Below are positions 9,688 to 39,426 of a stretch of DNA of 39,578 nt, one piece after another. Every line of letters starts with the position of its first letter. Positions within the stretch are counted from its first letter, which is position 1. A model generated the notes under the pieces. It had not been told where the DNA came from, searched no databases, and saw nothing but the letters and a program-made list of their open reading frames with translations. The position numbers and the translations under genes were made by a program. The DNA comes from Bacteroidaceae bacterium. Lineage in GTDB: Bacteria; Bacteroidota; Bacteroidia; Bacteroidales; Bacteroidaceae. The stretch spans positions 1 to 39,578 of the forward strand of contig JAFSNB010000018.1 in assembly GCA_017447625.1 (NCBI GenBank). Direction: 5' to 3'.

Positions 9688-9762
9688 GGTGCCTAGTCGG
9701 ACTCGAACCGACGACATTCAGAACCACAATCTGACGCTCTAACCAACTGAACTATAGGCACC
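9688..9762 (-). tRNA. tRNA-His (anticodon GTG)
   Basis: A complete cloverleaf can be read on the minus strand. The acceptor is GGTGCCTA with TAGGCACC. The D-arm contains AGTTCAGTTGGTTAGAGC. The anticodon stem-loop TCAGA-TTGTGGT-TCTGA gives GTG. The T-arm is GTCGG-TTCGAGT-CCGAC. The acceptor has eight pairs: the extra 5-prime G pairs with C73, the hallmark of histidine tRNA (G-1). CCA is not encoded. A promoter element lies 31 bases upstream and a perfect terminator follows, so it is a single-gene unit. Confidence 0.97.
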
Positions 9763-9792
9763 GTGTAGATGGTTGCTTCTCAAAAGCGGGTG

Positions 9793-9800
9793 CAAAGGTA
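9793..9800 (-). promoter_or_regulatory. sigma-ABfr -7 element for tRNA-His
   Basis: Minus-strand TACCTTTG followed by CACCC, about 31 bases before the tRNA 5-prime end. Confidence 0.7.
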
Positions 9801-9847
9801 CGTCTTATTTGTGTAACTGCCAAAAGATTCCCAGACTTTTTTTCGAT

Positions 9848-11191
9848 TTATACGCTTTTAACCACCTTGCAGGGGTTCCCGACAGCTATTGAACCGTCTG
9901 GGATGTCCCTCACGACCACGGAACCGGCTCCGATGGTGACTCCGTTGCCGATGGTGACTCCTGGCAGAATGGTTACATCGCCGCCAATCCACACGTTGTT
10001 GCCGATGCGGACGGGACGGGCCCACTCCTGACGCGTGTTGCGCTCGTCTGGGTCGGTGCTGTGGCAGGCGGTAAAGATGCTCACGTTCGGGCCTATGAAG
10101 CAGTCGTCTCCAATGGTGACAGGGGCTTCGTCAAGGACGGTGAAGTTGAAGTTCGCGAAGAAACGCTTACCGACGCTGATGTGTTTGCCGTAGTCGCAAT
10201 GGAAGGGCTGAATCACAAAAGCCTTGTCGTCGGCGATATGTCCGAAAAGGCTGTAGAGAATAGCTTTGTGTCCCTCGCGGTCGGACGGCTGAAGACTGTT
10301 GTAGCGGTGGAGCACGTCCTTCACGGCATTGAGCTCGCGCACCAGAGCGGGGTCTGTGGCCTGATAGACTTCACCACTTAGCATCTTATGCTCCTCTGCG
10401 GTTTGATCGGCGGGGTGCTCATATAGGTCGCTGACGCTACGTACAGAGCTTAGTTCGCTTAGCAACTGGGCATATTTCTCAGCTACTGCCTCGGCAAAGC
10501 GGCGGCCTTTGTCTGCTGTGGCGAGATGCGGATTTCCAATGCCGGTGTCGTCAGTTATCTGCGTCCAATGGCGCGGCAGCCAAGCCACTTTCTGCTGTAA
10601 GGAAGGTAGGGCGAAAGCACGGGCTTTGCCTGGTCCGGCATCTTCCAGACGCACCAGTTCGGGGTGGTAGTGCATCATCACAGACGTCTCCAGCTCGTCG
10701 GCGTGGTCGCCCGGCTCATCGAAATACTGTTTGGCGGGCAGGACTGTGAACCACTCGGAGGAGAGAATTATGAAGTCCGGATAATCCACGGCCAAGTCAC
10801 GTATAAATCCCTTGAAAGAGTTGCCGCCGTGACCATTTACAATCAGCAGTTTTCGGATGCCCTGATGTGCCAGCGATGCCACGATATCGGTGAGTATGGC
10901 GCGCTGGGTGTCCTCGCGGTAGTGGATACAGAAAGACAGGTCGCGCTGTCCGGGATTTTGCGCTCCCATCATCACCGACGGCAGAACCATAGCGCGCACG
11001 CCGTATTTGTCCAGCGCGATGCGGGCCGCATCTACCGCCACGTCGTGAGAGAGGATGCTGTCGGTGAGGTAGGGGAGATGCAGGTTGTGCGGCTCTGTGG
11101 CCCCCCACGGCAGGATGGCTATGTCGTAGCGTTTGCCACGCACATAGCCATAAGCTGCCTTGGAAAGATCTATTTCGAATTCACAATTCAT
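9848..11191 (-). CDS. Fusion of a creatininase-family amidohydrolase with a maltose/galactoside O-acetyltransferase-like hexapeptide protein
   Basis: The 447-residue chain is uninterrupted. Residues about 1-250 are a creatininase-family fold: PWGATEPHNLHLPYLTD supplies Glu33, His35 and Asp44, NGHGGN supplies His121, and DHADELET supplies acidic ligands near 166-168. This family of metal-dependent amidohydrolases includes creatininase and MftE-like peptidases. Residues about 266-447 are a complete sugar O-acetyltransferase: the Mac segment EEHKMLSGEVYQATDP, then a left-handed beta-helix with repeated V/I-x-I-G-x-x turns and TACHSTD with the usual catalytic His377. Each half is normally an independent enzyme of about 240 and 185 residues. 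The joint (about residues 250-266) shows no stop or frameshift. The first codons come from a dispersed repeat. It lies 55 bases after the TlpA-like gene and probably shares its transcript. Confidence 0.85.
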   Translation of the reverse strand: MNCEFEIDLSKAAYGYVRGKRYDIAILPWGATEPHNLHLPYLTDSILSHDVAVDAARIALDKYGVRAMVLPSVMMGAQNPGQRDLSFCIHYREDTQRAILTDIVASLAHQGIRKLLIVNGHGGNSFKGFIRDLAVDYPDFIILSSEWFTVLPAKQYFDEPGDHADELETSVMMHYHPELVRLEDAGPGKARAFALPSLQQKVAWLPRHWTQITDDTGIGNPHLATADKGRRFAEAVAEKYAQLLSELSSVRSVSDLYEHPADQTAEEHKMLSGEVYQATDPALVRELNAVKDVLHRYNSLQPSDREGHKAILYSLFGHIADDKAFVIQPFHCDYGKHISVGKRFFANFNFTVLDEAPVTIGDDCFIGPNVSIFTACHSTDPDERNTRQEWARPVRIGNNVWIGGDVTILPGVTIGNGVTIGAGSVVVRDIPDGSIAVGNPCKVVKSV

Positions 11192-11246
11192 AATGCGTAA
11201 TTCATAATTATTCGACTTTGCTCATCAATACGTCATAATTAGGCTG
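11178..11246. repeat. Composite dispersed repeat, copy A (spans the fusion-gene start codon)
   Basis: Two modules are shared with 27398-27461. A 35-bp element at 11206-11240 equals, in reverse complement, 27427-27461 with two mismatches. A 19-bp module GCATTATGAATTGTGAATT (minus strand, 11196-11178) is identical to 27412-27430. In this copy the 19-bp module contains the ATG and next three codons of the creatininase fusion. The modules are in a different order in the two copies. Confidence 0.85.
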
Positions 11247-12347
11247 CTATTGGGCGAGAAGTTCCTCAATTTTCGGAGCGAGGTCTTCGCCGCGAACGTC
11301 GCGAGCCACAATCTTACCGCCTTTGATAAACACGGTTGCGGGAATCGCACGTACGCTGTAGAGAGCAGCTCCCTCGGCGTTCCAGCCCTTCAAGTCGGAA
11401 ATCTGGGGCCAAGTCATCTCGAGTTCTGCCAAAGCCTTCTTCCAGGCCTCTTCATCCTCATCGAGGCTGACACCCAGAATCTCAAAGCCCTGATCATGGT
11501 ATTTCTCGTATGCAGCCTTGACGGTGGGCATCTCTCCTCGACAGGGACCGCACCAACTGGCCCAGAAGTCAATCATAAGGACGCGGGAAGCGGAAGCCAC
11601 ATCGCTCACGGACAGAGTCTTGCCGTCGGGGGTGGAGGCGGAGAAGTTGGTAAACGGCTGGCCAATGGCTGTGTCACCCTTCTTCTCCATTGCTTTCTTT
11701 GCTTCGCGAAGCGGAGAATAAATCTTAGCATTTGCAGGCAGGGCGTTGATCTGCTCTTCCATGAATCCGTCGCCCAACTGTTCGCCAACGTTGGCCAGAT
11801 AGAACTGCCCGACGTATGTGTTGATGTTCTCCTTGATGAAGTTCTTGTAAAGCTCGATTATGCAGTTCTGAAGAGAGTCGGCAGACTGCTGGAACTGTGC
11901 CTGAGCCTCGTCGCTGCCTGACTTCAAAAGGTCTGCATAGAGGGCGGACAGCGACTCTTGGATGGCGTATGCCTTGTATGTGAGGTCGGTCTGAAGGTCG
12001 TTGTTCTGTGTGCCAGTAACCTCAGAGTAAGCGGAATCGGGGTGCAGGGTCATCTTGATGTCACCGCCCTCGATGAAGAATAAGACCTGAGCGGGGCGCT
12101 GCTCGCTCTCGTAGATAGCGTAGGCCATCTGGATGCTGTCGATTTCGCCGCCCAGGAAGAACTTGCCGTCGTTGATGGTTGTGCTGTTGAGCGTGTCCAT
12201 ATCCTCGCCGTCCGGCACAAGGATAAGGATGCGGTCGCCGTCTTCGGCACCGTCCACGGTTCCCTTGATGGTGTAGCTTTCTGATTGTGTACAGCTGGCC
12301 AAACCTATAGTGGCGAGAGCCAGCAACAGTTGCAATGTTTTTTTCAT
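11247..12347 (-). CDS. TlpA/ResA-like thiol-disulfide oxidoreductase lipoprotein (DUF4369 + AhpC/TSA)
   Basis: This 366-residue predicted lipoprotein has lipobox LASC with Cys19. Residues about 25-115 form a DUF4369 beta domain (SYTIKGTVDGAEDGDRILI...). A helical linker rich in Gln/Ala/Asp follows, and the C-terminal thioredoxin fold covers about 228-366 (AIGQPFTNFSASTPDGKTLS). The redox motif WCGPC has Cys266 and Cys269, and the cis-proline lies in SVRAIPATVF. Such proteins reduce or isomerise thiols in the periplasm, usually anchored to a membrane. It is a very common Bacteroidetes architecture and the client protein is unknown. It has its own promoter at 12399-12406 and is followed by the creatininase fusion. 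Confidence 0.9.
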   Translation of the reverse strand: MKKTLQLLLALATIGLASCTQSESYTIKGTVDGAEDGDRILILVPDGEDMDTLNSTTINDGKFFLGGEIDSIQMAYAIYESEQRPAQVLFFIEGGDIKMTLHPDSAYSEVTGTQNNDLQTDLTYKAYAIQESLSALYADLLKSGSDEAQAQFQQSADSLQNCIIELYKNFIKENINTYVGQFYLANVGEQLGDGFMEEQINALPANAKIYSPLREAKKAMEKKGDTAIGQPFTNFSASTPDGKTLSVSDVASASRVLMIDFWASWCGPCRGEMPTVKAAYEKYHDQGFEILGVSLDEDEEAWKKALAELEMTWPQISDLKGWNAEGAALYSVRAIPATVFIKGGKIVARDVRGEDLAPKIEELLAQ

Positions 12348-34916: not shown

Positions 34917-35060
34917 CCTATGTGCATGTCCGCTTCTGGGAACATTTACAGCAATCATGAACAGCGTCCGCCGAAATTGACCTTTTAAGGCTTTGCCTTA
35001 AAAAATTCTATTTTCTTGCAAAATAATTGCAAAAATACTTGCGGAACCAATTATTTTTAT

Positions 35061-35068
35061 TACCTTTG
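35061..35068 (+). promoter_or_regulatory. sigma-ABfr -7 element for the OMP-lipoprotein operon
   Basis: TACCTTTG followed by CAC, 24 bases before the ATG at 35092, with TTGC-containing sequence near 35038 at -33 distance. Confidence 0.7.
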
Positions 35069-35091
35069 CACAGTTTTTAGAACCAACAGCA

Positions 35092-36312
35092 ATGAACATA
35101 CAAAAATACATACTCACCCTACTGTTTATGCTGCTTGCCACCGTGCAGATGGCCGCTCAGGGTCTCGTGGTCAAACAGTTCTACCACGCCGAGCTCGACA
35201 TCACTGCTAAAACTGGCTCCACCCAAGTCTCAGACGTCAACGAGAAGCCCTGTGCCTTGATTAAAGTGCGAACGATGGAACAAGGTTTTGTTTTCCAAAC
35301 CAGCAAGCTGTTGCCTATTGTGAAAATTGAGGAGCAGACCAAGTCGCACCCGATGGAGATTTATGTCTGGGTACAGAGCGGTGTTAAGCGCCTGTCCATA
35401 GGTCATAAGAAGTATGGGACCATTTACGATTACGACTTAGCACAACATCTCGGTTCCAACCCTCTTGAATCTGATGAAACGTATATTCTGGAACTGGAAA
35501 CGATTGAGGCGCAGCCTACCGTCAAAGAGGCGCGCACGCAAACCGACAAAGAGGGGGAAACAGCGACACAGACTGAAAACCTGAAGAATGGGGCTGGGAC
35601 AGCAGGCGCGGCAGCCACAACCGCTACCGCCAAACAGCCTAAGCAAAAGGAGAAGCAGTCTCAAACAGAGATAGCTAAGACCGAGAAGCCTAAGTCCGAA
35701 AAGCCCAAGGTAGAGAAGCCGAAAGCAGAGAAACCTAAGACGGAAAAGCCCAAGACGGTCAAACCTAAAAGCACCACACCATCCGTGCCACTGATGAAAC
35801 CGACGGAGTTCTATGTCTCAATAGGTGCGCAGCCCATAAGCCTTCTGGGACTGACCGCAGACGTAGGCGTCTATCTCAAAAACATCAATATCGAAGGCTT
35901 CTACACCCTCGGACTCGCCTCAGAGACAGTCTATTGGGGCTCTGCAAACTCCACCGCCAAGTACGAGTACAAATACAAACCCTCGGTATTCGGCCTGAGA
36001 CTGGGCTACGGCATACTGCTGGCAAACAGCCGACTGCGAATCACTCCGCAGGTAGGCATAGCCGCCGTTACGGTGACGGGAAAGGAGAACGGCGGGAACA
36101 ACGGCTCCTCACACGCCAACTCAATGTCCGGAACAGTCGGAGCACGAGTGGATTTTGCCCTGGCTCGTCACATCGGGCTGTACCTCACGCCGGAATACGG
36201 CATCGCGCTCAGCAAATCCTCAGTCTATAAGGAGCTGCAAGCAGATTACAGTAAGTTTGGCAAGTGGAATTCGGGCTTCAACGTCCGCCTCGGCCTCCGT
36301 GTTTCATTCTGA
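35092..36312 (+). CDS. Outer-membrane beta-barrel protein with Lys-Pro repeat linker
   Basis: This is a 406-residue protein in three parts. A signal peptide (MNIQKYILTLLFMLLATVQMAAQ) is followed by an N-terminal beta domain (about 24-140) with FYHAELDITAKT...CALIKVRTMEQGFVF...YVWVQSGVKRLSIGHKKYGTIYDY, a PEGA-like pattern common in Bacteroidales. The linker (about 140-230) ends in six pentapeptide repeats of EKPKx type (198-227), resembling the rigid Lys-Pro arm of TonB. A C-terminal barrel (about 238-406) ends with VRLGLRVSF. The linker could span peptidoglycan or hold the two folded parts apart. The gene is separated from the BACON-FGE lipoprotein gene by only 15 bases, so the two products probably act together at the surface. 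Confidence 0.75.
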   Translation: MNIQKYILTLLFMLLATVQMAAQGLVVKQFYHAELDITAKTGSTQVSDVNEKPCALIKVRTMEQGFVFQTSKLLPIVKIEEQTKSHPMEIYVWVQSGVKRLSIGHKKYGTIYDYDLAQHLGSNPLESDETYILELETIEAQPTVKEARTQTDKEGETATQTENLKNGAGTAGAAATTATAKQPKQKEKQSQTEIAKTEKPKSEKPKVEKPKAEKPKTEKPKTVKPKSTTPSVPLMKPTEFYVSIGAQPISLLGLTADVGVYLKNINIEGFYTLGLASETVYWGSANSTAKYEYKYKPSVFGLRLGYGILLANSRLRITPQVGIAAVTVTGKENGGNNGSSHANSMSGTVGARVDFALARHIGLYLTPEYGIALSKSSVYKELQADYSKFGKWNSGFNVRLGLRVSF

Positions 36313-36327
36313 TAAGACCACACCGTT

Positions 36328-38763
36328 ATGAAAGCAAGACATATACTCCCGTTCGTGATTCTCTGTTCACTGCTTCTTTCCTGCAAGGACGACAGACCGT
36401 TTGAGGACGCTTATCTGTGGCAGAACAACGCCAGTCTGACAGCCTCCCTGACAACATTGCTGTTCGAGGCCGACGCATCCACTCAGACGGTGGCAATAAA
36501 CACCAACAGCGGCTATGGGATTACCGTTGATCAGACTTGGCTGACAGTGGAGCGCGCCGCTGACAATCAGACCCTTACCGTCTCCGTTCAGGCAAACACA
36601 ACCTCTGCAACCCGCAACGCAACCATCACGATAAACGCATCAGGCAAGAGCCAGACAATAAGTGTGAGTCAAAGTGCAGCTTCGCTAAATGTGTCTAAAT
36701 CAATACTTACGTTTGATGCGTCTGAATCATCTGAGTCTGTTTCTGTGACAGCCAGTGGTGATTTCATATACTCCACTGATGCTTCGTGGCTCACCATAAC
36801 AAAAGACTCTGCAACAACTCGTACAGAGAGTGTAACATATTTTACGATAACTGCTGCCGCAAACACAGAAGAGTCCGAAAGGACTGCAACGATAACGCTG
36901 ACCTTAGGCTCAATTACAAAGACGATAGAAGTAATACAGGACGCTGCAAATATTTCTCGCACATTCACCATTACAGATAATGGCAAGACTATAACTTTCA
37001 AAATGAAAGAAGTGAAAGCCGGAACCTTCCAGATGGGCCGTGAAAGTTCAACAAATGTAGCTATGCCGATCCATAGTGTGACTATCACAAGTGATTACTA
37101 TATGGGCGAAACGGAGGTGACTCAGGCTCTGTGGTATGCTGTAATGGGGCAGTCACCTACATCCAGTGGAAATCAATGGCGCAGTTCATTTGGTCTTGGT
37201 GACAACTATCCCTCTTATTATATCAGTTATGAGGATTGCCAGTTATTCCTGTCAGCTTTGAATAGTAAGCTGTCCTCTCAACTGGGTAGCGGCGAGCAGT
37301 TCCGCTTCCCGACGGAGGCGGAGTGGGAGTTTGCAGCGAGGGGCGGAAACAAAAGCAATGATTACATCTATTCTGGCAGCAACACAATAGATGATGTTGC
37401 CTGGTATTGGGATAATAGTTATGCACTTGGTGCTGTAAATGCTGACTATGGTACTCATACAGTAAAGACTAAAGCAGCCAATGAACTTGGTCTTTATGAT
37501 ATGAGTGGCAATCTATGGGAACTGTGTTATGACTGGTATGGCACATATAGTAGCAGCGCACAGACAGACCCGTCAGGCCCCTACTCGGGCTCCAAACGCT
37601 TGATTCGTGGTGGTAGTTGGAGCCATGAAGCATCTATTTGCAGCGTAACTTACCGCATTTGGTATGCACCGTCTGACAGAAATAATCTTGTAGGCTTTCG
37701 TCTTTGCCTCGGTGCTCCTATTTCAGAGCCAGAACCATCGCTCTCTGTGTCACCAACATCACTTTCTTTTGGTGCATCAGCATCATCTAAGACGGTTAAC
37801 GTTACTGCTAACGGAGATTACACTTTTTCCACTTCTGCTTCGTGGCTTACGATAACCCAAAGCAGCGACAAAACCACTCTCACGATATCTGCTGAAGCAA
37901 ACACAGGGACATCTGAAAGAACAGCAACAATCACACTGACCTTGGGCTCGCTTACTCAGACAATAAGTGTTACGCAGGAAGCAGCACAAAACATTTCTGA
38001 CGACGAACGCACTTTCACCGTGACTGGCCACGGGAAGACTTTCACCTTCAAGATGAAGAAAGTACAAGGCGGAACCTTCCAGATGGGGCGTGCTGGTGCG
38101 GATGATGTTGCAACTCCCGTCCACAGCGTGACTCTTACAAACGATTACTATATGGGCGAGACAGAGGTGACTCAGGCTCTGTGGTATGCCGTATTGGGGT
38201 ATTCACCAACATCCCCAACATCTGGTGGCTATGATTGGAGTAGTACGTACGGCCTCGGAGACAACTATCCTGCTTATTATATCAGCTATATGGACTGTAT
38301 GTCGTTCCTTGCTTTTTTGAACAGCAATTTGTCCTCTCAGCTTGGTGTTGGTGAACAGTTCCGTTTCCCGACAGAGGCGGAGTGGGAGTTTGCAGCTAAG
38401 GGCGGGACTAAGAGTTGTGGCTACATATATTCTGGCAGCAATACAGCAGACGATGTTGCATGGTTCGTTGTTAATAGCGACAAAAAAAATCATCCGGTTA
38501 AGACAAAAGCCTCCAATGAGCTCGGCCTTTATGATATGAGCGGCAATGTTGGAGAGTGGTGTTATGATTGGTTTGGCTCATATAGCAGTAGTGCTCAGAG
38601 CGATCCTACAGGCTCAACCTCAGGTTCTGGTCGCGTTTATCGTGGGGGCGCTATGTACTACAACGCCTCTGACTGCCGAGTAGCGAGCCGCAGCAAGTTT
38701 GTGCCAACGGGCCGCAGTTACTATGTCGGCTTCCGCCTGTGCCTTGGTGCTTCGATTGAATAA
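36328..38763 (+). CDS. Surface lipoprotein with duplicated BACON-FGE-like modules
   Basis: This 811-residue lipoprotein has lipobox LLSC with Cys19. Domains: BACON 1 (about 37-118), BACON 2 (119-207), FGE/SUMF1-like 1 (222-462), BACON 3 (471-554), and FGE/SUMF1-like 2 (572-808). BACON modules often bind glycans or mucin. FGE-like folds are C-type-lectin-related; both copies have the family core FQMG, YYMGETEVTQALWYAV, FRFPTEAEWEFAA and GLYDMSGN. In true formylglycine-generating enzymes two cysteines five apart form the copper site. Here only the second is kept (Cys438, Cys783); the first is His433 or Tyr778, so sulfatase maturation is unlikely. The two FGE copies are near-identical in framework but diverge sharply at 430-454 and 775-799. 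BACON-FGE has duplicated internally, as DNA similarity also shows. Confidence 0.85.
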   Translation: MKARHILPFVILCSLLLSCKDDRPFEDAYLWQNNASLTASLTTLLFEADASTQTVAINTNSGYGITVDQTWLTVERAADNQTLTVSVQANTTSATRNATITINASGKSQTISVSQSAASLNVSKSILTFDASESSESVSVTASGDFIYSTDASWLTITKDSATTRTESVTYFTITAAANTEESERTATITLTLGSITKTIEVIQDAANISRTFTITDNGKTITFKMKEVKAGTFQMGRESSTNVAMPIHSVTITSDYYMGETEVTQALWYAVMGQSPTSSGNQWRSSFGLGDNYPSYYISYEDCQLFLSALNSKLSSQLGSGEQFRFPTEAEWEFAARGGNKSNDYIYSGSNTIDDVAWYWDNSYALGAVNADYGTHTVKTKAANELGLYDMSGNLWELCYDWYGTYSSSAQTDPSGPYSGSKRLIRGGSWSHEASICSVTYRIWYAPSDRNNLVGFRLCLGAPISEPEPSLSVSPTSLSFGASASSKTVNVTANGDYTFSTSASWLTITQSSDKTTLTISAEANTGTSERTATITLTLGSLTQTISVTQEAAQNISDDERTFTVTGHGKTFTFKMKKVQGGTFQMGRAGADDVATPVHSVTLTNDYYMGETEVTQALWYAVLGYSPTSPTSGGYDWSSTYGLGDNYPAYYISYMDCMSFLAFLNSNLSSQLGVGEQFRFPTEAEWEFAAKGGTKSCGYIYSGSNTADDVAWFVVNSDKKNHPVKTKASNELGLYDMSGNVGEWCYDWFGSYSSSAQSDPTGSTSGSGRVYRGGAMYYNASDCRVASRSKFVPTGRSYYVGFRLCLGASIE

Positions 38764-38868: not shown

Positions 38869-39426
38869 TCACTTCCATAGCGGTTCGTTCTGCCAGTCTT
38901 TTACAAAGCCCATAGCAGAAGGATCTACTGAAGTGTATTTCCCAAGAAGAGCCTTAAACTCTGTAGTGAATGTGTTTTGAGGGTCGATGCTAATCAGTAA
39001 ATATGCGATGCACGATAGCTGTGGATAGAGTTTGTCTGGTGGAAACGAAAAGTCCGTCAGCCAATTGCCTCCTTGCATCCTGCGTGGCATTTGAGGTTTT
39101 ACTGCATAGCGACGATTCCAAATGCGTGAATGGTGTGCACAGAAATTACGTAGCGATGTGAGGCTTTCGAGCCAACTAATCATAAACTCATGCTGAGGAA
39201 CACCAAAATCCACGGCCACCTGCTTCTTGTCGGCTTTTATTGAGAAGTTGCCATAGAGTTTGGATAGGGTTCCAAAGGAAACGGTTTCAAGCGTTTTCCA
39301 TGCTGGAGGGAAGGTGGGTTTTGTATAGCGCACGAAATGCTCTTTGATGAATTCCTCCTTGCTGCGTCGCAACTCACGATCAACGCTACTCAAGTTTTCT
39401 GTAAAAAGGTGACCGTCTATAGCCAA
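38869..39426 (-). pseudogene. Abi-type (AbiD/AbiF, Abi_2) gene truncated at its 5-prime end by an IS
   Basis: The retained 185 codons match the C-terminal part of Abi_2 (PF07751) proteins, which number about 300 residues and act in phage abortive infection. Visible features are the RELRRSKEEFIKEHF helix, PPAWKTLETVSFGTLSKLYGNF and the family hallmark SLTSLRNFCAHHSRIWNRR. This last contains a HEPN-type R-x4-H motif. The N-terminal ~110 residues are missing. The frame continues upstream past a TTG at 39426 to about 39453, where it enters the end of the right IS and meets a stop, so no proper start remains. The rest may lie beyond the IS. A short TTG-initiated product is possible but probably inactive. 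Confidence 0.75.

What the first reader, a model, noticed from the sequence alone, without database searches (positions are those of the whole stretch)
37606..38742. Paired hypervariable-looking C-type-lectin surfaces in a BACON-FGE lipoprotein (possible DGR target)
Seen: the two FGE-like domains share long identical framework stretches (for example DYYMGETEVTQALWYAV, 17 of 17). In the 34-residue segments 427-460 and 772-805, however, only 16 positions match. The mismatches cluster at the spots that alternate with fixed Arg, Gly, Ala-Ser, Cys, Val and Pro, and the segments end in the identical GFRLCLGA. In copy 2 many variable codons are one or two changes from AAC or AAT (for example GAC, AGC, AAG, GGC, AGT, TAC). 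Known: diversity-generating retroelements mutate adenines in the terminal part of FGE-fold (C-type lectin) proteins, frequently surface lipoproteins in Bacteroidales. Inferred: this protein has two variable regions, unlike the usual single terminal one. No reverse transcriptase or template repeat is present in this window.
Basis: partly seen in the sequence, partly recalled or inferred. Interest (0 to 1): 0.75.

Follow-up and report, generated by a model that had tools for sequence, protein, structure and literature searches.

The report
Tandem lectin lipoprotein, DGR-related, template unseen
A gut-type bacterium carries a surface lipoprotein with two copies of a lectin-like domain; relatives in the same genus let a mutation-making retroelement rewrite the tip of such domains, but here copy 1 looks fixed and for copy 2 no matching template was found, so it is at most an old or untraced target.

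Summary
In detail: window 36328-38763 encodes an 811-residue BACON/FGE lipoprotein whose FGE domains match at 16 of 34 residues in segments 427-460 and 772-805. "Two hypervariable surfaces" is half wrong. In the one close relative found (G077) segment 1 is 35 of 38 identical, so it is not hypervariable there. Segment 2 differs (20 of 41 identical), and in that relative it carries the codon signature of a diversity-generating retroelement (DGR) variable repeat: framework codons shared with FGE genes of other species, changes mostly at template adenines. Two complete DGRs with FGE targets (G109, G026) and two detached templates (G020, G017) occur in the genus. In the window's own genome the only reverse transcriptase found belongs to a prophage-like DGR (13 of 14 mismatches at adenine) with an unrelated template. 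No template for segment 2 was found, and tests on segment 2 itself are mixed. Best reading: a target-family protein with domain 1 frozen and domain 2 in the target position, orphaned or long unrefreshed. The assembly is 73% complete, so a trans-acting template is not excluded. Close precedent: Treponema denticola TvpA-type targets, including strains with targets but no DGR core.

The parts
36328..38763 (+). BACON-FGE-BACON-FGE lipoprotein gene, 811 aa
   Evidence: ORF; Pfam PF03781 (2 stretches), PF13004 (3 stretches); N-terminus MKARHILPFVILCSLLLSC looks like a lipoprotein signal (read by eye, no predictor run)
36949..37716 (+). FGE domain 1 (aa 208-463), conserved in the G077 ortholog
   Evidence: body (aa 208-425) 210 of 217 residues identical; 96-100% DNA identity in 90-nt windows starting 37020-37500, 80% at the very start of the domain (36960), 90-94% across segment 1; nearest solved structure by sequence 2y3c TvpA, E 5.5e-32
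37606..37707 (+). Segment 1 (aa 427-460): FGE C-terminal framework segment, not hypervariable in the one ortholog
   Evidence: 35 of 38 identical for aa 426-463; no template-codon signature
37822..37980 (+). third BACON domain between the two FGE domains
   Evidence: best stretch aa 499-551
37996..38751 (+). FGE domain 2 (aa 557-808), diverged in the ortholog
   Evidence: body (aa 557-770) 157 of 210; nearest solved structure by sequence 2y3c TvpA, E 1.1e-33
38641..38742 (+). Segment 2 (aa 772-805): position equivalent to the DGR variable repeat of relatives; here without a known template
   Evidence: no template
35092..36312 (+). upstream outer-membrane beta-barrel-like protein gene, shared with the lipoprotein as a pair
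   Evidence: PF03797 just over its cut-off, PF13505 below it
34974..38762 (+). extent of the main DNA similarity to G077 contig C77: the gene pair, flanks almost without similarity by blastn

Best explanation
The gene is a tandem-duplicated FGE (C-type-lectin fold) surface lipoprotein belonging to a family that, in this genus, is rewritten at the C-terminus of the FGE domain by DGRs of the FGE-target / HRDC-accessory kind (shown for relatives). Mechanism in relatives: template RNA is reverse transcribed with errors at adenines and the copy replaces the last ~110 nt of the target gene (established for DGRs; here inferred from template/variable-repeat mismatches). In the window gene, domain 1 is a fixed copy (shown with one ortholog). 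Domain 2 occupies the target position, next to the stop codon, and in the G077 ortholog that position carries a variable repeat of the shared-template class (shown by codon signature). In the window genome the domain-2 segment has no traceable template, so I infer an orphaned target whose last rewriting is old, with the rest of its divergence from recombination and ordinary mutation. Likely role: display of a ligand-binding surface (inferred from fold).
For: Two complete DGRs with FGE targets in the genus: RT, HRDC accessory gene, template and variable repeat (G109; G026). Detached templates in G020 and G017 whose mismatches to an FGE gene on another contig of the same genome fall at template A in 19 of 22 and 20 of 26 cases over 114 sites. 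Among 2153 pairs of 67 FGE domains, 25 pass p < 0.05/2153 for third-base identity higher in the segment than in the body; in the nine best pairs body identity is 36-45% and segment identity 84-95%, and non-synonymous codons keep the third base 13 of 13 to 16 of 19 times (pairs are not independent). The 434 pairs that involve a conserved FGE family (7 domains, control) reach p 0.055 at best. The G077 domain 2 belongs to this class; of two other FGE genes of the window genome, C35:183k does by pairs and C35:186k leans to it (P 0.0007, 0.057). C35:183k is followed by a stub of the accessory gene, so a DGR once sat in this lineage. Domain 1 lacks the signature (P 0.93, excess +0.01, P 0.99).
Against: For the window's own segment 2 the evidence is weak: third-base agreement with the G109 template 13 of 18 (P 0.015, one of 21 domains tested, uncorrected), but C-ending codons at 13 template AAY columns only 8 (expected 7.4, P 0.49); 0 of its 66 pairs reach p < 0.001 (the proven G109 repeat also has 0 of 65, the G026 one 5 of 65). 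Mismatches to the nearest template fall at 18 of 30 A sites and 22 of 75 other sites (p 0.004), but domains with no other signature show as strong a bias (L054, L032, L055). C35:183k, though strong by pairs, is only P 0.055 and 0.074. No accessory stub was found in the 400 nt behind the window gene.
Confidence: 0.55

Rival explanations
1. Segment 2 is a currently active remote target, rewritten in trans by a DGR whose template and reverse transcriptase lie in the unassembled part of the genome.
For: Assembly 73% complete; templates on a contig other than the target's exist in G020 and G017; third-base agreement 13 of 18 and third-base excess +0.16, equal to that of the proven G109 repeat.
Against: No template in the own assembly; in 139 genomes of the genus the segment's DNA matches, besides itself, only G077 (67%), 79 nt in G034 and 35 nt in an own paralog, all in FGE genes, while the control repeat finds its template at E 1.2e-33. 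It differs at 22 of 75 non-adenine sites from the nearest of four known templates; those templates differ from one another at 18-21 of 105 sites.
Confidence: 0.2
2. No DGR has ever acted on this gene: the FGE domain was duplicated and the C-terminal loop region diverged faster under weak or positive selection.
For: Segment-1/segment-2 third positions differ like the rest of the domain (18 of 34 against 100 of 218); G077/window domain 2 likewise 18 of 41 against 95 of 210; one search gives P 0.49 for segment 2, and the A bias is not specific.
Against: The ortholog's domain 2 carries the shared-template signature, the same genome has DGR-marked paralogs, and segment 2 but not segment 1 leans to the signature.
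Confidence: 0.25
3. The divergence of domain 2 is mainly module exchange: the gene pair is a cassette reassorted by homologous recombination among paralogs. This can act together with any of the others.
For: Identity with G077 is patchy: 96-100% in windows starting 37020-37500, 79-89% over BACON 2 and the start of domain 1, 69-85% over BACON 3 and domain 2; the main similarity begins at 34974 and ends at 38762.
Against: It does not explain the excess of segment over body divergence or the shared-template codons of the G077 segment.
Confidence: 0.35

Closest known systems
Treponema denticola TvpA-type DGR (FGE/C-type-lectin lipoprotein targets, HRDC accessory, remote targets; PMC4891356, passages seen)
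   Same: FGE lipoprotein targets, variable C-terminus, HRDC accessory gene next to the RT, targets scattered away from the core, and isolates with 2-6 targets but no RT or template. TvpA (2y3c) is the nearest solved structure by sequence to both window domains.
   Different: Window protein has two FGE domains and BACON repeats; no cognate template or RT is seen; its segment matches no known template closely.
Thiohalocapsa PB-PSB1 DGRs with degenerate loci and trans diversification (PMC10907252, passages seen)
   Same: Loci that lost RT or template, targets best explained by trans action.
   Different: Other phylum and target class; population data there, none here.
Bacteroides phage DGR (PMC6199706, search listing with start of abstract only)
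   Same: The window genome's own DGR on contig C34 lies among phage-like ORFs.
   Different: It targets a 1057-residue protein, not the window gene.

Membership tests
DGR target (variable protein), segment 2 | C-terminal segment of a C-type-lectin-fold domain next to the stop codon | tested here: met
   Pfam FGE-sulfatase; nearest solved structure by sequence TvpA 2y3c; position 38641-38742, stop at 38761-38763. Fold itself not predicted
DGR target (variable protein), segment 2 | A template repeat in the genome with mismatches at template adenines | tested here: not met
   searches find none; control works; assembly 73% complete, so absence is not final
DGR target (variable protein), segment 2 | Cognate DGR reverse transcriptase | tested here: not met
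   only RT found in the assembly is the C34 one (PF00078, E<=0.001), with its own template; no match to the G109 RT at E<=1e-10
DGR target (variable protein), segment 2 | Variation confined to codon positions given by template adenines | tested here: inconclusive
   P 0.015; P 0.49; excess +0.16 with 0 of 66 pairs at p<0.001
DGR target (variable protein), segment 1 | Variation between relatives / template-codon signature | tested here: not met
   35 of 38 identical in one ortholog; P 0.93; +0.01; P 0.99
DGR target (variable protein) | Population-level hypervariation | not testable with these tools
   no strain or read data; metagenome scans capped at 0; viral contigs gave no match
DGR target (variable protein) | Initiation-of-mutagenic-homing site / downstream hairpin | not tested
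   not examined
FGE-target DGR with HRDC accessory (relatives G109, G026) | RT + template + A-specific mismatches + HRDC gene | tested here: met
   mismatches; PF00078 for both RTs; PF00570 for the accessory protein of G026 and G109, 34% identical to each other

The most novel reading that the evidence does not exclude
A one-chain pair of lectin domains in which copy 1 is kept constant while copy 2, beside the stop codon where DGR homing works, is rewritten in trans by a dispersed template: a constant/variable two-domain display protein served by a DGR whose templates and targets are scattered and exchanged between species of the genus.
Probability: 0.2. Interest if true: 0.7.

Novelty: new member of a known kind. 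Interest (0 to 1): 0.45.

Why it matters
The genus (139 genomes searched, own included) shows FGE targets of several species that share template-derived codons, two templates sitting apart from any intact reverse transcriptase, and repeated stubs of the accessory gene behind targets. That makes it possible to follow how DGR targets spread, lose their machinery and become fixed. The window gene is a useful case because a frozen and a target-position copy sit in the same chain.

Tried and rejected
Rejected: two variable regions from one template (third positions differ in 18 of 34 codons). Rejected: the own-genome DGR on C34 as the source (its template lies beside its own target; DNA searches with either side do not join them to the window segments). 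Tried without result: viral contigs (no match); genome contigs (only the G077 record and a distant Lentisphaerales locus); phage records (18 records, all under 60% identity); accessory stub in the 400 nt behind the window gene (none). The fragment behind the stub at C35:183.6k looks to me like an IS3-type transposase piece (recalled motif), but Pfam gave no hit. Structure prediction was not run.

Rows dropped and limits: twenty loci named in the script (mostly repeats of others) were skipped, domains without the C-terminal segment and domains with an identical 240-nt tail were removed, leaving 67; of 2211 possible pairs 2153 had enough aligned columns. In one search, 13 of the 30 RT loci L081-L110 gave a repeat pair by my filter; displays 11 of them plus L020 (L098 and L109 not shown); 2 of these 11 have an FGE target. 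For G109 the count depends on the extent: 11 of 13 at A over 141 nt, 12 of 17 over 152 nt, 10 of 10 in the codon core. For G020 and G017 a 35-codon frame gives 21 A and 2 other mismatches, and 21 A and 4 other. In some searches the tool scored at most 6 and 5 candidates per genome; 54 of the 67 domains have at least 500 nt held downstream.

Full report
1. What is in the window. ORF 36328-38763 codes for 811 residues: a lipoprotein-like N-terminus (by eye), BACON domains, FGE domain 1 (aa 208-463), a further BACON, FGE domain 2 (aa 557-808) ending three residues before the stop (domain limits mine). Third codon positions differ in 18 of 34 segment codons against 100 of 218 in the body, i.e. at about the same rate, while positions 1 and 2 differ about twice as often (14 and 12 of 34, against 49 and 34 of 218). 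That is faster amino-acid change, not two copies of one template.

2. The own genome. G000 has 2.56 Mb in 46 contigs, 73% complete. Its single PF00078 hit lies on contig C34 among ORFs that look phage-like to me (portal-, tape-measure- and amidase-like by eye; not checked by profile except the RT, which matches a PHROG reverse transcriptase family). It is a DGR: a 111-nt repeat with 14 mismatches, 13 at template adenines, in the 3' end of a 1057-residue gene, followed by the reverse transcriptase. Its motif reads IGTPTSP where the usual DGR form, as I recall it, is IGxxxSQ. A DNA search of the assembly with window 38560-38763 finds itself, a 35-nt match in an FGE paralog (C35:187008) and short matches at E 0.2 or worse; the same search with the C34 repeat returns its template at E 1.2e-33. 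A search with the template peptide of relative G109 gives 8 hits in G000, all in FGE reading frames or FGE fragments.

3. The ortholog. The only close relative found is G077 (contig of the same length as record JAILPK010000007.1, MAG RUI330). N-terminal part 185 of 207 identical, domain 1 body 210 of 217, segment 1 35 of 38, linker 74 of 89, domain 2 body 157 of 210, segment 2 20 of 41. DNA identity is 96-100% in windows starting 37020-37500, 90-94% across segment 1, 80% at the very start of domain 1, and 69-85% over BACON 3 and domain 2; the main similarity starts at 34974 and stops at 38762, with nothing but a 38-nt match elsewhere outside the FGE domains. So domain 1 and its segment are conserved, and domain 2 was exchanged or diverged as a whole, most in its segment. 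The general divergence of the two genomes was not measured (one search failed).

4. Relatives show that this protein family is a DGR target family. G109: RT of 340 aa with IGNLTSQ, HRDC accessory protein, template and variable repeat with 11 of 13 mismatches at A over 141 nt. G026: 17 of 17 at A, RT and HRDC found by Pfam, target of 714 aa with an FGE domain. In 139 genomes of the genus, 26 have an RT related to that of G109 at E<=1e-10; G000, G077, G020 and G017 are not among them. Of the 11 RT loci whose repeats I displayed, these two have an FGE target; the other nine targets do not show the FGE framework by eye.

5. Shared templates without machinery. The DNA of the G077 segment 2 matches 18 places in 14 of 139 genomes, itself included: 16 in FGE genes and 2 stand-alone templates. 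In G000 its best match is not the window gene (67%) but an FGE gene at C35:183k (76% over 150 nt): 17 codons differ in amino acid, 14 of them keep the third base, and 3 of 21 identical residues differ in codon, although the bodies are 111 of 181 identical in protein with third bases equal in 75 of 181. In the comparison of 67 FGE domains, 25 of 2153 pairs pass p < 0.05/2153 and 91 pass 0.001; 434 pairs with a conserved FGE family reach 0.055 at best. The stand-alone templates are G020:C147 and G017:C33; their mismatches to the FGE gene on another contig of the same genome fall at A in 19 of 22 and 20 of 26 cases. The G017 template is preceded by the last ~50 codons of a DGR reverse transcriptase (46% identical); for G020 no such remnant was found in the 11.5 kb held. 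In G110 two paralogs differ in 13 segment residues, all with the third base kept, plus 3 synonymous codons, though no RT was found there. Accessory-gene matches lie 106-156 nt behind 8 of 67 FGE domains: full length in G109 and G026, residues 1-100 in G011, and only residues up to 36-39 in five others (G000:C35:183.6k, G020, G106, G017, G018). I read the frames behind four of these five; the rest of the gene could in part be diverged beyond detection.

6. Does the window's segment 2 belong to this? Against template codons of G109 it agrees at the third base in 13 of 18 positions (expected 8.3, P 0.015), domain 1 in 7 of 18 (P 0.93) (21 domains tested, no correction). Averaged over pairs its excess of third-base retention over the body is +0.16, the same as for the proven G109 repeat (G026 repeat +0.19), against +0.01 for domain 1 and 0 to +0.09 for the seven control domains. 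But at the 13 template AAY columns C-ending codons are 8 of 13 (P 0.49), against 12 of 13 for the G077 segment (P 0.004) and 3 of 13 for domain 1; the proven repeats of G109 and G026 give P 0.35 and 0.054 in this test, so it is not very sensitive. Its DNA matches, besides itself, only G077, 79 nt in G034 and 35 nt in an own paralog. From the nearest of four known templates it differs at 22 of 75 non-adenine sites; the templates differ from each other at 18-21 of 105 sites. It is therefore either an old repeat, or a repeat of an unseen template, or an ordinary FGE end; I prefer the first.

7. What is known. T. denticola has FGE lipoprotein targets with HRDC accessory genes, remote targets, and isolates with 2-6 targets but no RT or template (PMC4891356, passages). 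Degenerate loci and trans diversification are described in Thiohalocapsa (PMC10907252, passages) and remote targets in cyanobacteria (PMC7517822, passages). Several repeats within one target ORF have been counted (31 DGRs; PMC6642488, passages). A global survey had no occurrence of the words FGE or BACON in its main text (PMC8144416, passages). My searches (listings of 15 of 24, 12 of 13, 12 of 206, 10 of 15 and 8 of 8 papers) showed no title or abstract start on BACON-FGE targets in this kind of bacterium; the library holds open-licence papers only, so this is no proof of novelty.

8. Verdict. Observation right, double-target reading not supported, single-target reading plausible but unproven. 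The protein is a new member of a known kind of family; the spread of templates and stubs in the genus is the more interesting part.

Noticed in passing
L020:9348-9458 (variable repeat), 9740-9850 (template), 9850-11376 (RT ORF); G000 contig C34: Complete prophage-like DGR in the window's own genome, 13 of 14 mismatches at template A; RT motif IGTPTSP instead of the usual IGxxxSQ (recalled).
   Followed up: partly
L022:3599-3706; L161:3018-3134; L162:2041-2160 (-); L136:881-976 (-); behind the FGE domain in L041: Stubs of the HRDC accessory gene (matches end at residues 32-41) behind FGE targets in five genomes, with a break after nearly the same codon: perhaps the edge of a dispersal unit.
   Followed up: partly
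L147 from 1501 (G020:C147) and L150 from about 1501 (G017:C33): Stand-alone FGE templates, one preceded by the tail of a DGR reverse transcriptase, with no intact RT found nearby.
   Followed up: partly
L063 and L064 (G110): Two paralogs that differ in 13 segment residues, all with the third base kept; no RT found in that genome.
   Followed up: partly
window 34974-38762: The outer-membrane protein / lipoprotein gene pair lies between unrelated flanks in G077, as if it moves as a cassette.
   Followed up: no
L021:1576-4182 (G000:C35:117.6-120.2k): Another tandem FGE gene in the same genome; a TAG stop falls inside the match of its second FGE copy.
   Followed up: no
window 38869-39426 (-): Abi_2-like ORF near the contig end that matches only the second half of the Pfam profile (positions 95-184 of 184).
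   Followed up: no
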